A stretch of DNA of 64,000 nucleotides from an uncultured Sulfitobacter sp. (GTDB lineage Bacteria; Pseudomonadota; Alphaproteobacteria; Rhodobacterales; Rhodobacteraceae), in contig CANMXJ010000002.1 of the NCBI GenBank assembly GCA_947501805.1, forward strand, positions 248,001 to 312,000, written 5' to 3'. The notes beneath the pieces were generated by a model, which did no database searches, was not told the origin of the DNA, and worked only from the letters and a program-made list of their open reading frames with translations. Made by a program: the position numbers and the translations under genes. This document shows, one piece after another, positions 37,368 to 42,925 of the stretch (the stretch's first letter is position 1; every line of letters starts with the position of its first letter).

Positions 37368-38597
37368 CTATCCGTTAAATTTCGACAGGATCATCGACCC
37401 GTTGGTGCCACCAAATCCGAAGGAGTTGGTCATCACTGAATCCAGTCCAGCATTGTCCACCCGGGTGGTCGCAATTTCGGCGGCGTCCAGTGCAGGATCC
37501 AGCGTTTCCACGTTGATTGAAGGCGTGATGAAATCGTCCTTTAGCATCAGCAGGCAAAAGATCGCCTCCATGGCACCGGCAGAGCCTTGCCCGTGACCTG
37601 TCATGCTCTTGGTTGAACTCACAGGCGGCGTGCTGCCTTGACCAAAGACGCGGCGGACTGCTTCGATCTCGCCGACGTCACCCACGGGTGTCGAGGTGCC
37701 GTGTGCGTTGATATAGCTGACCTTACGTCCTTCTGGCAGGGTTGCCAGTGCCAGTTCCATGGCGCGCTGGCCACCTTCGCCGGAGGGGGCCACCATGTCG
37801 TGTCCATCCGATGTGGCCGCAAATCCGGTGACTTCGGCATAGATCGTTGCGCCGCGGGCCAGCGCATGATCAAGGTCTTCGAGCACCACCATGCCGCCAC
37901 CGCCCGTGATCACAAAACCGTCGCGATTGGCGTCAAAGGCGCGGGATGCCTTTTCGGGTGTGTCGTTATATTTGCTGCTCATTGCGCCCATGGCGTCAAA
38001 CAGGCAGGACAACGTCCAGTCCAGTTCTTCACCCCCGCCGGCAAACATTACGTCCTGTTTGCCCAGCATGATCTGTTCTGCCGCCGCTCCGATGCAATGC
38101 AACGATGTCGAGCAGGCCGAAGTAATCGAATAGTTGATGCCTTTGATCTTAAAGGCTGTCGAAAGGTTTGCGCTGATTGTGGAGGACATGCACTTGGGCA
38201 CTGCAAACGGCCCGATACGTTTTGTGGCACCTGTCTTGTCGACAATATCATGCGCCGCTTTCATGGCAGAGGTCGACGGCCCTCCGGAACCCGCAATCAA
38301 ACCCGTGCGCGGGTTGCTGATCACATCCTCGCCAAGTCCTGAATCTGCAATCGCCTGCTCCATCGCAAGATAGGCATAGGCTGCACCCTGTCCCATGAAC
38401 CGCAATGTGCGCTTGTCGATGTGATCGGCCACATTGATCTTGAGCGTGCCTGCAACTTGGCTCCGGAAGCCGTGTTCGACCATCTCGGGGCTGGTCTCGA
38501 TACCCGAGGTGCCCGCCTTCAAAGACGCAGTGACTTCTTCGGCGTTATTCCCGATGGACGAGATGATACCAAGACCTGTGACAACAACCCGTTTCAT
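37368..38597 (-). CDS. fabB: 3-oxoacyl-ACP synthase I
   Basis: 409 residues. Catalytic Cys162 (SACSTSLHC), His in [11 protein letters not shown] (about 298) and His in [10 protein letters not shown] (about 333) form the thiolase-fold Cys-His-His triad; the GHGQGSAGA form marks KAS I. It elongates the unsaturated acyl chain made by FabA. Start 38597 ([10 protein letters not shown]) is preferred over an 18-residue upstream extension. It is followed by fabI. The 108 bp upstream separate it from a LuxR gene on the same strand. Confidence 0.95.
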
Positions 38598-38704
38598 GAG
38601 CAAACCTCTGGTTTGATGCGGCGCATGGGCAGCACTCCTTATAATAATCAACTCTGTTTAGGATAGGAGGGCGTCGCGGCGCAACCAAATAGGGCGCGCG
38701 CGCT

Positions 38705-39433
38705 TCAGCGCAGGATGTGCAAGCCCAATGCACGGGCCACAGCTGCAGAGTTAGAACTTACCACAAGTTTGCGCCGCAGGCTCATGCAGGCCTTGGCGAC
38801 CCAGTTGCGGCTGACGCCGCTGGTTTGCGCGATTTGTTGTTGGGACATGCCGTAGAACAGGAGGTGCAGGTATTTTACCTCGTTTTCCGTCAGGCCCAGT
38901 TTGCGTTCGGCGGCTGCGCCCAATTTGATGTTGATCTTTTCGTGCATCTCGACCGCTGATCCCATCGCGGCATAGAGTACCTGTTTGCTCAGGATTTCGT
39001 TCTTGCGCCCACCGGAGAATCCGGCACCTGCCATTGGATTGTTGCGTAGTTGGTACAGGAAGTCATAGGTCATACCGTATTTCAGGCCTTGCACCATCAA
39101 CCCCGCATATTTGGGCGAAATAAAGCGTTTCTGTTTGGCGTAAAAGGCAATCGAATAAGGCGGCTGGCTTTGGCACAGGCTGGAAAGCATTTGGCTAAGA
39201 TCGTTTTGAAAGTAGTACTCGATCCAGTCGGGATGCCCGCGCATCAGGTAGCAATTGATCAGGTCGGGACCGTCCGTGTTCACAAATGCAGAGCAATAGG
39301 TGAAATGCGTCAGCCCGTACTCCAGCCAGCGGTTTGCATAGCTGTGGAATAGGTCACAAATGCCTTGCTGGTCCGCAGGCGACAGGCCGCATTCATCCGC
39401 AAAGGTTTCGTGAAAAATATAGTCTTGGAGCAT
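38705..39433 (-). CDS. LuxR-family transcriptional regulator (autoinducer-binding type, no adjacent luxI)
   Basis: 242 residues, normal LuxR length when started at 39433. The N-terminal domain has HPDWIEYYFQND, matching the Trp...Tyr...Asp signature of AHL-binding pockets, though the usual Pro after Asp is missing. The C-terminal HTH is LTENEVKYLHLLFYGMSQQQIAQTSG and SRNWVAKACMSLRRKL. No luxI-type synthase is within the window, so it is a LuxR solo or pairs with a distant synthase. A 20-bp dyad lies 60-80 bp upstream. It is divergent from the acidic small protein gene at 39631. Confidence 0.85.
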   Translation of the reverse strand: MLQDYIFHETFADECGLSPADQQGICDLFHSYANRWLEYGLTHFTYCSAFVNTDGPDLINCYLMRGHPDWIEYYFQNDLSQMLSSLCQSQPPYSIAFYAKQKRFISPKYAGLMVQGLKYGMTYDFLYQLRNNPMAGAGFSGGRKNEILSKQVLYAAMGSAVEMHEKINIKLGAAAERKLGLTENEVKYLHLLFYGMSQQQIAQTSGVSRNWVAKACMSLRRKLVVSSNSAAVARALGLHILR

Positions 39434-39493
39434 GTGCTCTAGATGCCCTGAAAAAAGATCTGTTGCCTGCCTTTTTTTGACGTTGTGCGGGGT

Positions 39494-39513
39494 TTGTCCA
39501 TATTTATGGACAA
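39494..39513. promoter_or_regulatory. 20-bp dyad, possible LuxR (lux box-like) operator
   Basis: TTGTCCATATTTATGGACAA consists of two perfect 8-bp arms around ATTT. Its length equals that of lux boxes. It lies between divergent genes: 61 bp before the LuxR start at 39433 and 118 bp before the gene at 39631, so it could serve either or both. Binding is inferred from position only. Confidence 0.45.
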
Positions 39514-39630
39514 TCACGGGCGTGTAGGTGGAAAACAAGGTGAATTTCCTGCCAACCTGATCAAGTCTTTGGAAATGCGTACTTTCTGTAACGGTATGCA
39601 CGTATGAAACACTTGCAAGGAGAGCCGAAA

Positions 39631-40056
39631 ATGAGCTTTGATCCCGAGATGAGACTGCCAACCATCGTCGTGAAAGGCGAACGCGGACAGGACCAGCAAC
39701 AGATCGATCGCCTGAAGGATCAGGTACGACAGGATGATGCGGCAGGCTTTGACGATTGTCCTGTGTTTTATGAAGGGGGTGGTGGTGGCGGCTTGCCCTA
39801 TTACATGGATTCCAGCGCGATGCTTGAATTGGCACTTTCCGATATGAAGTCGCTTGGCGATGGTGTCTTCGAATTCACGCTTCTGGACACCTTTTATGCG
39901 GACTTGGATGGAAATGGAATGCGTGATGCATGTGACCCGATTTACGAGGCTGGTCATACCACCACCATTAATACACTGGGTGGCGACGCCGCTGATGCGC
40001 GTGAGTCGTTTACAAATCTCTGGCAATTGTTGCCACCGCAGTATGACATGTTCTGA
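39631..40056 (+). CDS. Small acidic protein of unknown function with Gly run and Asp-rich loop
   Basis: 141 residues, strongly acidic, no signal peptide. An N-terminal charged region (IVVKGERGQDQQQIDRL) is followed by a six-Gly run (FYEGGGGGGLPYY) and an EF-hand-like DLDGNGMRDACDP that could bind calcium. AAGGAG stands before ATG 39631; an upstream in-frame ATG at 39604 is less likely. It is divergent from the LuxR gene and shares its upstream region with the 20-bp dyad, which makes it a candidate LuxR target. No family recognised. Confidence 0.65.
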   Translation: MSFDPEMRLPTIVVKGERGQDQQQIDRLKDQVRQDDAAGFDDCPVFYEGGGGGGLPYYMDSSAMLELALSDMKSLGDGVFEFTLLDTFYADLDGNGMRDACDPIYEAGHTTTINTLGGDAADARESFTNLWQLLPPQYDMF

Positions 40057-40092
40057 CGCCATGGCAGGTCAAAGAGCGCCTCAACGTGTGCT

Positions 40093-40281
40093 TTAGCTGG
40101 CCTTCTTATTCATGAACACGTAGATCACCTCGCCGTCGGCATCCACGATGTCGTCGGCGACAATCATCCCAGGGTTGCAATTGTGGATCACAGGAATGGC
40201 ACCAATCCTGTCAGTCAGCATTTCGCGTTCAGGGCGGGCCATGTTTCTGTGCGATACAACGCCCGCTTTTAAGGCCCGGTC
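40093..40281 (-). pseudogene. fabA: Decayed 3' end of a second fabA copy
   Basis: Read on the minus strand this stretch contains ARPEREMLTDRIGA and later IVADDIVDADGEVIY. The intact FabA has [14 protein letters not shown] and [15 protein letters not shown]. About half the last 50 residues match, in register, and weaker similarity (AL..G.V) continues a little upstream until a stop at 40282-40284. The rest of fabA is absent. An ATG at 40242 would allow a 49-residue peptide, but the catalytic His and Asp lie outside it. It shares the orientation of fabA and fabB, so it may mark the old fabA-fabB junction. Confidence 0.7.
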
Positions 40282-40415
40282 CTATCTCTTTGACAAGTAG
40301 AACCGCCCCAACGGCTTGATTTAAAACTGGTTTTGGAACACTATCTGAAGTGGCTTATGCCATTGCGCCGCTTACTCCAGTGATCTTGACCATTATCTAT
40401 CGGGCTTTTCCCAAC

Positions 40416-42152
40416 ATGACCCAAGAAGACGCTTCCCCATCAGATTTGCCCGCATTGGTCGATCTGACTTATTCGGCCACGACTGATCCGGGGCGATATG
40501 ACGAGTTAGTTCAGGTCTGGGAACAATACATGTCCGGGCTTTCGAGCAGTGAAATCGAGGATGCGCAACAAAACCACTTGCGGCATTTCAACCGCGCGCT
40601 TGAGATATTCGAGCGGATTGGCCGCCAGAAACACCAGCAGGATCGCGCAGACAGGGTTGTCGAGTTGTTTGATGTGCCAGCCTTTGTGATGGATCGCAAC
40701 GGCGTGGTGTTGCAGACCAACAAGATGGGTGAAGCGGGTCAGCTGTCGATTTCCTATGACGGTGCCGCAGAAGACAACGGGTTGTCCTTACTTGATCGCG
40801 AGGCGCTGAAGTCTGCTATTTCGCGGCTTCAGCAGGGTGCTCCTGTGGCGCTCATTCCGGTGCACGACAGCACAGATCGTTTGATGGATTGCGCTGTGAT
40901 CACCGCGCTGGAACAGGGTCAGGGCGAAGGGGACCGGTTTCTTCTGGTGTCAAGCGGACCCTCCTTGAGCGAAGAACAGCTTGCCAGCCTTCAGCAACAG
41001 TTCAACCTCAGCGATTCTGAAACGCAAGTTCTGGTGGCTTTGCTTCGGGGAGAAACAGTCGCCGAAATCTCGCAACGCCGCGGGGTTGGCGAAGCGACAA
41101 CACGCACGCAGGTTCGCAAGCTGCTTGAGAAAACCAGCAGCCCGACATTGGCAGACCTGATCCGGCAGGCGACGTTGATCTCGGCGCAGATTACCGCTGT
41201 CGGTTTGGCGCAGAAGCTGACCGCGAAGGAAGAGGCTGCGGCGGTTTCATATGACCGTATCCTGACGTCTGACGGACGATTGCTTGCTTATCGCGATTTC
41301 GGTGATCCGGAGGGGCGTCCGGTTTTGTTCATACACAACATGATCGGTGGCGCAATCTGGACCCGCAAGATGGAACAGCTGGCCCGTGCGCGGCGCTGGC
41401 GCATCATTGCGCCCTCGCGGCCCGGTTTTGGGCTGTCTGACAGTTATCCCGCGCGGGATATGGAATTGGTGCGCAAGACCTGTTCGGACATGCGCGCCTT
41501 GCTGGACCAGTTGGGCATTGATCGTGCATTGGTGATCGGCATGATCTCTTCTGCGGGGGTGGGCATCCGATTTGCCAAGGATCACCCTGATCGTGTGGTT
41601 GGGTTATTAAACGTCTCACATGCGGGCGTGATTGATGATGAATTGATCGACGGCATGGCCAATCCGTCACGAGCCATGGCCAAGACCTATCGCAAGTCCG
41701 CGACCGCGCTGCGCTTTCTGATCCGTGTTGCTGTGGCATCGGTTGATTTGCTGGGACCGACACAAATGCTGCGTTCCAATTTTCGCCGCTCTGAGCCGGA
41801 CGCACTGTTATTTGAGGACAAGGAGCTGGTGGATGCCATCGGTCAGGGCTTGCAACACGCAATAGCGCAGGGCGGAGAGGCCTTTTCCCGCGACGGATTT
41901 GTCTCATTGAATGATTTCAGCAAAGAGCTGCGCAGCCTGACCTGCCGCGCTGTGTGTCTGATGGGCAGCGAGGATGTGATGTATCCGACCACCCATGCTC
42001 TGCGTTTGATGAAAGGCATTCCCAACTACGAAGCCGTTGTTCTGGAAAATGCCGGGCAATTCGTTTTCTACGGGCGTTTCGGCGAAGTGCTGGATGTTAT
42101 GGACGGTATTTGGCAGGACGGTCAGAGGTTAATTGCAGTCGCTGCCTCATAA
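40416..42152 (+). CDS. LuxR-type HTH fused to a catalytically degenerate alpha/beta hydrolase domain
   Basis: 578 residues. N-terminal sensor-like region (about 10-180), LuxR HTH at about 198-250 (LSDSETQVLVALLRGETVAEI and ATTRTQVRKLLEK), then an alpha/beta hydrolase domain (278-570). The hydrolase core is well preserved (GRPVLFIHN, APSRPGFGLSD, FAKDHPDRV, acid Asp520 in GSEDVMYP), but the elbow reads GMISSAG instead of GxSxGG and the catalytic His is Gln548 (ENAGQFVFY). This suggests a ligand sensor rather than an enzyme. A GTG start at 40350 is possible; 40416 fits the family N-terminus. It lies between a fabA remnant and intact fabA. Confidence 0.85.
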   Translation: MTQEDASPSDLPALVDLTYSATTDPGRYDELVQVWEQYMSGLSSSEIEDAQQNHLRHFNRALEIFERIGRQKHQQDRADRVVELFDVPAFVMDRNGVVLQTNKMGEAGQLSISYDGAAEDNGLSLLDREALKSAISRLQQGAPVALIPVHDSTDRLMDCAVITALEQGQGEGDRFLLVSSGPSLSEEQLASLQQQFNLSDSETQVLVALLRGETVAEISQRRGVGEATTRTQVRKLLEKTSSPTLADLIRQATLISAQITAVGLAQKLTAKEEAAAVSYDRILTSDGRLLAYRDFGDPEGRPVLFIHNMIGGAIWTRKMEQLARARRWRIIAPSRPGFGLSDSYPARDMELVRKTCSDMRALLDQLGIDRALVIGMISSAGVGIRFAKDHPDRVVGLLNVSHAGVIDDELIDGMANPSRAMAKTYRKSATALRFLIRVAVASVDLLGPTQMLRSNFRRSEPDALLFEDKELVDAIGQGLQHAIAQGGEAFSRDGFVSLNDFSKELRSLTCRAVCLMGSEDVMYPTTHALRLMKGIPNYEAVVLENAGQFVFYGRFGEVLDVMDGIWQDGQRLIAVAAS

Positions 42153-42415
42153 ATTTTGCTGCTATCCACAATTTTGTGGATGTCGGTACGTTCAAACCTC
42201 TTTCTAGTGGGGGAACGATTTTGAACGGAACGATACTTGAAGAAATTGGAAACGTCAGGCTGCCAAGAATTTCTGGCCCAGTCACGCCAGATGACCTCCT
42301 CGATCAGCAGGTGAAACTGCGGGTCGAGGAGGAATTTTCCCGCCTTTTCCTAAGTCGATTGCACGGTCGTCCCGCGTGTTTGAGGGGTGTCATCTGACGC
42401 CAATTGCGGCGTGAA

Positions 42416-42925
42416 TCAGCTTTCGGACAACGCCACTTTCATGTCCTTGACCTCGTATATCACCTCACCATCCGCTTCTACGATGCCGTCAGCGACCCCC
42501 ATGGTCAGGCGGCGTGTCTGGATCGCCTTGGTGAAATCAATTTTGTAGGTCAGCATTTTGCGGTCAGGGCGCACCATGCCTTTCAGCTTCACTTCGCCCA
42601 CACCCAAAGCATAACCGCGCCCCTGCCAGCCGCGCCAGCCGAGGTTGAAACCCGTCAACTGCCACAGACCGTCAAGACCAAGGCAGCCGGGCATAATCGG
42701 GTTGCCAGGAAAGTGGCAGTCAAAGAACCAAAGGTCAGGTGTAATGTCGAATTCGGCCGTGATGTGGCCTTTGCCATGCGCGCCGCCGTCGCCGGAGACA
42801 TCGGTGATCCGGTCCATCATCAGCATCGGCGGGGCGGGCAGTTGTGCATTGCCGGGGCCGAACAACTCGCCAGCGGCGCATTTCAACAAGGCTTTTTTGT
42901 CAAAGCTGGTGGGGTAATCGGCCAT
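42416..42925 (-). CDS. fabA: 3-hydroxydecanoyl-ACP dehydratase/isomerase
   Basis: 169 residues. Active-site His is in [12 protein letters not shown] and Asp in [10 protein letters not shown], as in FabA. It dehydrates 3-hydroxydecanoyl-ACP and isomerises trans-2 to cis-3-decenoyl-ACP, starting unsaturated fatty-acid synthesis. It is divergent from irr, a common alphaproteobacterial arrangement, but fabB-fabI, its usual operon partners, are 3.8 kb downstream beyond the LuxR genes. The 263 bp beyond its stop, up to the LuxR-hydrolase gene, show nothing definite. Confidence 0.95.

What the first reader, a model, noticed from the sequence alone, without database searches (positions are those of the whole stretch)
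40416..42152. LuxR-type regulator fused to an alpha/beta hydrolase that has lost its catalytic residues
Seen: a LuxR HTH lies upstream of a full hydrolase domain in one 578-residue chain; the elbow is GMISSAG rather than GxSxGG (nucleophile aligns to Ile377 or shifts to Ser378), and the His position is Gln548, while the fold and Asp520 stay. Established: plant receptors such as GID1 use hydrolase folds with lost catalysis to sense small molecules. Inference: a bacterial one-component regulator using a pseudo-hydrolase as receptor.
Basis: partly seen in the sequence, partly recalled or inferred. Interest (0 to 1): 0.75.

Follow-up and report, generated by a model that had tools for sequence, protein, structure and literature searches.

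The report
Gene regulator built on dead hydrolase
A marine bacterium carries a DNA-binding protein whose second half is an enzyme-shaped domain that has lost its cutting residues yet is well conserved in many relatives, so it probably senses a small molecule instead of cutting it.

Summary
In detail: 40416-42152 (+) encodes 578 residues with a LuxR-like HTH and a complete alpha/beta-hydrolase fold: Ile377 at the nucleophile, Asp520 kept, Gln548 for the catalytic His. The loss is a family trait: of 139 distinct fused members examined (P0001 included), 92 have Gln548; 90 of these keep the Asp, 1 has Ser at the nucleophile. In the Gln class the cap is more conserved than the core (32 of 39 disjoint pairs; 8 of 14 in other fused members; 2 of 28 overlapping pairs of a stand-alone enzyme), so it is maintained, not decaying. 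Best reading: an orphan PAS-HTH one-component regulator whose pseudo-hydrolase is a ligand receptor. Ligand, target and DNA binding are undetermined; no gene neighbour is shared across the subclade. New variant of a known kind.

The parts
40416..42152 (+). whole gene, 578 aa: N-terminal helices, PAS-fold domain, LuxR-like HTH, linker helix, pseudo-hydrolase
40437..40664 (+). N-terminal helices, residues 8-83 (Trp35, His57 invariant and Tyr19 near-invariant in the 24 rows of A2)
40668..40970 (+). PAS-fold domain, residues 85-185; the least conserved part
40971..41150 (+). LuxR-like HTH, residues 186-245
   Evidence: GerE weak here, 17 of 18 members; helices in the model
41151..41252 (+). linker with long helix, residues 246-279
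   Evidence: model
41253..42146 (+). alpha/beta-hydrolase fold without catalytic Ser or His, residues 280-577
41538..41552 (+). nucleophile elbow G375-M-I377-S378-S; Ile377 in the nucleophile place
41637..41933 (+). helical cap of the hydrolase, residues 408-506, the most conserved region of the 7-member subclade
   Evidence: helices
41973..41975 (+). Asp520, retained acid
42057..42059 (+). Gln548 in place of the catalytic His

Best explanation
A one-component transcription regulator in which a PAS - LuxR-like HTH module (the order seen in VqmA and EL222, recalled) is followed by an alpha/beta-hydrolase domain that has become a receptor. SHOWN: domain order, intact predicted fold, loss of Ser and His, Asp kept with Gln in place of His across a large family, purifying selection with the cap more conserved than the catalytic core. 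INFERRED: a small ligand, perhaps like the ester, lactone, diketone or acyl substrates of related hydrolases, enters the old active site and is held, not cut, with Asp520-Gln548 and residue 377 shaping the pocket; cap closure is passed through the linker helix (246-279) to the HTH and changes dimerisation or DNA binding. PAS may add a second signal. Ligand and target genes unknown.
Against: No ligand, no DNA site, no gene neighbour shared across the subclade. The conserved cap could equally be a dimer or inter-domain surface, and the HTH is about as conserved (cap above HTH in 22 of 39 pairs). 47 of 139 members do not have Gln548. Ser378 and His481 are invariant in the 7 subclade members, so a non-classical active site is not ruled out. 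The PAS domain may be the real sensor. Pair tests share deep ancestry, the survey was first seeded with Gln-type sequences, and P0001/L008 cap dN/dS was not measurable.
Confidence: 0.6

Rival explanations
1. The dead hydrolase is a structural part: it dimerises the protein or holds the HTH or PAS domain, and the signal comes through PAS alone.
For: PAS fold next to the HTH as in VqmA and EL222; the cap is more conserved than the core, as a protein interface would be.
Against: Asp520 and Gln548, which align with catalytic residues of solved hydrolases, are kept together in 90 of 92 Gln-type members, which an outer interface would not need (pocket position inferred, not measured); PAS is the least conserved domain.
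Confidence: 0.2
2. The domain is still an enzyme with a rearranged active site, for instance Ser378 with His481, or a reaction that needs no Ser.
For: Ser378, His481 and Asp520 are invariant in the 7 subclade members; complete triads exist in 10 of 139 members.
Against: Residue 378 is A or G in 69 of 95 Gln-type rows and 481 is H in 10 of 95 (the 95 include 3 duplicates); 378 sits one step past the elbow nucleophile.
Confidence: 0.12
3. The hydrolase half is a decaying remnant without function.
For: Ser and His lost; residue 377 varies widely.
Against: Low dN/dS and cap conservation; Gln at 548 in 92 of 139 rather than random letters; open frames in many genera.
Confidence: 0.03

Closest known systems
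PAS-LuxR one-component regulators (VqmA, EL222; also the TraJ PAS domain)
   Same: PAS-fold N-terminal domain before a LuxR-like HTH
   Different: Those end with or near the HTH (recalled); here the HTH is in the middle and a whole hydrolase domain follows
Meta-cleavage product hydrolases and esterases of the alpha/beta-hydrolase fold (HsaD, BphD, 9wlv)
   Same: Fold and acid residue
   Different: No Ser nucleophile, His replaced by Gln, fused to a DNA-binding module
BzdR (HTH fused to a dead shikimate kinase)
   Same: Enzyme-derived, inactive effector domain on an HTH (PMC3602430, abstract and concluding remarks)
   Different: Different fold, HTH-XRE type, known inducer benzoyl-CoA
Plant gibberellin receptor GID1 (recalled, no call)
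   Same: Hydrolase fold with lost catalysis used to hold a ligand
   Different: Not fused to DNA binding; as recalled GID1 keeps Ser and loses His, here both are lost; ligand here unknown

Membership tests
Alpha/beta-hydrolase fold | Significant profile match and fold | tested here: met
Serine hydrolases | Ser in the G-x-S-x-G elbow | tested here: not met
   Ile377
Serine hydrolases | Catalytic His | tested here: not met
   Gln548
Serine hydrolases | Catalytic acid | tested here: met
   Asp520
LuxR/GerE regulators | GerE match at the curated cut-off in P0001 itself | tested here: not met
   17.9 bits against 23.5; hence 'LuxR-like'
LuxR/GerE regulators | GerE match among aligned relatives | tested here: met
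   17 of 18 members of A4 at E up to 0.01, best 4.6e-11
LuxR/GerE regulators | HTH at the C-terminus (recalled as usual) | tested here: not met
   HTH at 186-245 of 578
Acyl-homoserine-lactone LuxR receptors | Autoinducer-binding domain | tested here: inconclusive
   No such Pfam row at E up to 1; the N-terminal half gives PAS folds, but absence from a list excludes nothing
PAS-LuxR regulators (VqmA, EL222) | PAS fold before the HTH | tested here: met
Pseudoenzyme ligand receptors (BzdR, GID1) | Ligand binding that changes output | not testable with these tools
   needs biochemistry
One-component regulators | Candidate input and DNA-binding domains in one chain | tested here: met
   domain order; regulation itself untested

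The most novel reading that the evidence does not exclude
Rhodobacteraceae and related bacteria carry a large, diversified family of hydrolase-fold hormone-type receptors wired directly to DNA: the Ser-His-Asp enzyme became an Asp-Gln binding pocket under a conserved cap, members with intact triads record the enzyme state, and each subclade reads a different small molecule. It would be a bacterial counterpart of GID1 joined to its own transcription factor.
Probability: 0.4. Interest if true: 0.75.

Novelty: new variant of a known kind. Interest (0 to 1): 0.57.

Why it matters
Enzyme-derived sensor domains on bacterial regulators are a known idea (BzdR), but in the searches (held open-licence library only; listings seen, capped in 78 and 92) I saw no account of an alpha/beta-hydrolase pseudoenzyme in that role. 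The family holds fused members with intact and with dead triads, both in one genome in the case of G130 (L184 and L046), so the step from enzyme to receptor can be tested directly, and unknown marine signals could be found through the receptors.

Tried and rejected
Link to fatty-acid genes: P0001 lies between fabA and fabB/fabI. The orthologue L129 and the subclade loci L131, L133, L134 and L135 show no fabA or fabB, nor a close fabI; L132 has a FabI-type reductase (60% over 256 aa) about 4 kb from its copy (flanks of up to about 10 kb, crude frame calling). One of six, so no operon inference.

Shifted nucleophile Ser378: not conserved in the wider Gln class, but invariant in the subclade, so left as a rival.

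Arg335 as a receptor mark: 139 of 139 fused members, but 2 of 5 ordinary own-genome hydrolases have Arg there too, so it is not specific.

Single origin of the Gln state: the quick tree (99 rows) needs 11 changes for Gln versus not-Gln and 8 for intact versus not; P0001 with L008 and L060 is starred at 99, deeper placement is open, long branches are present and the root is not inferred. No number or direction of losses is claimed.

First genome-contig scan found nothing; alignment A2 was too diverse for a scan; A3 worked. Paper searches returned no paper; others showed no such fusion among the titles listed (78: 15 of 536 shown; 92: 12 of 140 shown); only passages of PMC11878206 and PMC2447327 were seen. 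By sequence, the 60 rows shown of 273 PDB matches cover the hydrolase part only.

Limits: the genome sets overlap. The 139 are not an even sample: the first profile was made of Gln-type rows, an intact-seeded profile followed; most rows that came without a locus were not read. Ten of 149 distinct rows were dropped for lacking an HTH or a full hydrolase in the alignment. One of them, L146, is a full-length relative that had been misaligned: its elbow reads GHMSG and its His place is Ser, so it is dead but not Gln-type. Loci L149-L153 matched over short stretches only and were not examined. Cap/core pairs (493 of 540 in the Gln class) overlap; the disjoint pairs are the ones to use.

Full report

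THE ACTIVE SITE. Against 9wlv and HsaD the elbow reads G375-M-I377-S378-S-A-G with Ile377 in the nucleophile's place, Asp520 is the kept acid and Gln548 stands for the His. Five ordinary hydrolases found in the same genome, aligned in the same way, keep a full triad (3 S-D-H, 2 D-D-H). So the residues were read rightly.

IS THE LOSS CONSERVED? Profile searches, on overlapping genome sets, covered 295 genomes of the family (64 hits at 1e-50), 244 of the order (68 at 1e-40) and 398 of the phylum (36 at 1e-35). A scan of named species gave 23 loci, of which L131-L148 were read (17 complete). After removing 3 duplicates 149 distinct rows remained, 139 of them, P0001 included, with HTH and near-full hydrolase. 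Gln at 548: 92 of 139. Of these 92, 90 keep Asp520; the nucleophile place holds Gly 40, Met 28, Leu 12, Ala 4, Ile 3, and Ser, Cys, Glu, Arg and Phe once each. The genome's own second copy (contig C12, 23% identity) is also Gln-type, with elbow TQGND. The family code f1 is Rhodobacteraceae by inference: three of its contigs have the lengths of, and the hydrolase sequences are identical to, named records of Rhodalgimonas, Arenibacterium and Marimonas.

Ten of 139 fused members keep a nucleophile, Asp and His: eight Ser (L114, L117, L120, L125, L163, L168 in family f61 of another class; L184 and L185 in f1), L111 with Cys and L076 with Asp. L184 and L185 came from a profile seeded with f61-type members. 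Genome G130 holds both an intact (L184) and a Gln-type copy (L046). The other 37 members have neither Gln548 nor a whole triad. In a quick tree of 99 rows P0001 groups with L008 and L060 (starred, 99), all Gln-type; the intact fused rows other than L076 lie in another part, near frames without HTH, but deep branches are weak and the root unknown. Five frames without an HTH met on the way (L179, L180, L182, L186 near a contig end, L193) show S-D-H in the alignment windows.

IS IT MAINTAINED? In the P0001 subclade of 7, mean pairwise identity is 0.65 in the cap, 0.55 in the core, 0.53 in the HTH and 0.35 in PAS. For L133/L134 dN/dS is 0.008 in the cap, 0.083 in the core, 0.022 in the HTH and 0.40 in PAS. 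Of 12 pairs tried, cap and core could both be measured in 9, and the cap was lower in 8 (simple counting method, many synonymous distances saturated, P0001/L008 cap not measurable; in some pairs the HTH is lower still). In disjoint pairs of the Gln class the cap beats the core in 32 of 39 (p 7e-5) and the HTH in 22 of 39; in the other fused members it beats the core in 8 of 14; the two sets differ (Mann-Whitney p 0.005). In 8 orthologues of a stand-alone hydrolase of the genus the cap beats the core in 2 of 28 overlapping pairs. The cap is therefore under unusual constraint in the Gln class, as expected of a ligand lid, though an interface would look alike.

HOW IT LIKELY WORKS. Inference: a ligand sits in the former active site and is not cut; Asp520-Gln548 holds part of it; the cap closes; the linker helix carries the change to the HTH. 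Foldseek's close folds include BphD H265Q and S112A/H265Q, engineered with the same His-to-Gln swap (no paper on them was found). BzdR is the conceptual precedent: its dead chimera, unlike the active one, answered inducer in vivo (PMC3602430, abstract and concluding remarks). Neighbour genes give no clue: none is shared across the window, L129 and L131-L135; the near-identical L133 and L134 share some with each other, and a FabI-type reductase is shared by the window and L132 alone.

VERDICT. Real, conserved, probably functional; a pseudo-hydrolase receptor on a PAS-HTH regulator is the best reading (0.6), with ligand, target and even DNA binding unproven. A new variant of the known kind 'regulator with enzyme-derived sensor'.

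Noticed in passing
window 38652-42415, between fabB (37368-38651, -) and fabA (42416-42925, -): The fabA-fabB gap looks like an insertion hot spot in the genus: of 20 FabA loci fabB follows within 74-208 bases in 9, after 0.9-1.4 kb in 4, and is not within the held flank in 7, the window's included, whose gap is 3.8 kb.
   Followed up: partly
window 38705-39835 (-): Second regulator beside P0001 with a weak GerE-type HTH (17.7 bits, below cut-off); no Pfam match outside the HTH stretch.
   Followed up: no
window 39604-40056 (+): Open frame of 150 aa without a Pfam match, with an ADLDGNGMRD stretch; may or may not be a gene.
   Followed up: no
L184 (G130:C23) and L185 (G144:C12): HTH-hydrolase fusions with intact Ser-Asp-His in the same bacterial family; candidate regulators that may still cut their ligand.
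   Followed up: partly
L076, L084, L109; L111: Fused members with Asp (L076, L084, L109) or Cys (L111) at the nucleophile place and His kept; L084 and L109 have Ser at the acid place.
   Followed up: no
G540, G575, G576 and others (rows): Frames of roughly 380-480 aa match only the N-terminal and HTH part of the profile (about 43-283), suggesting that the PAS-HTH module also exists without the hydrolase.
   Followed up: no
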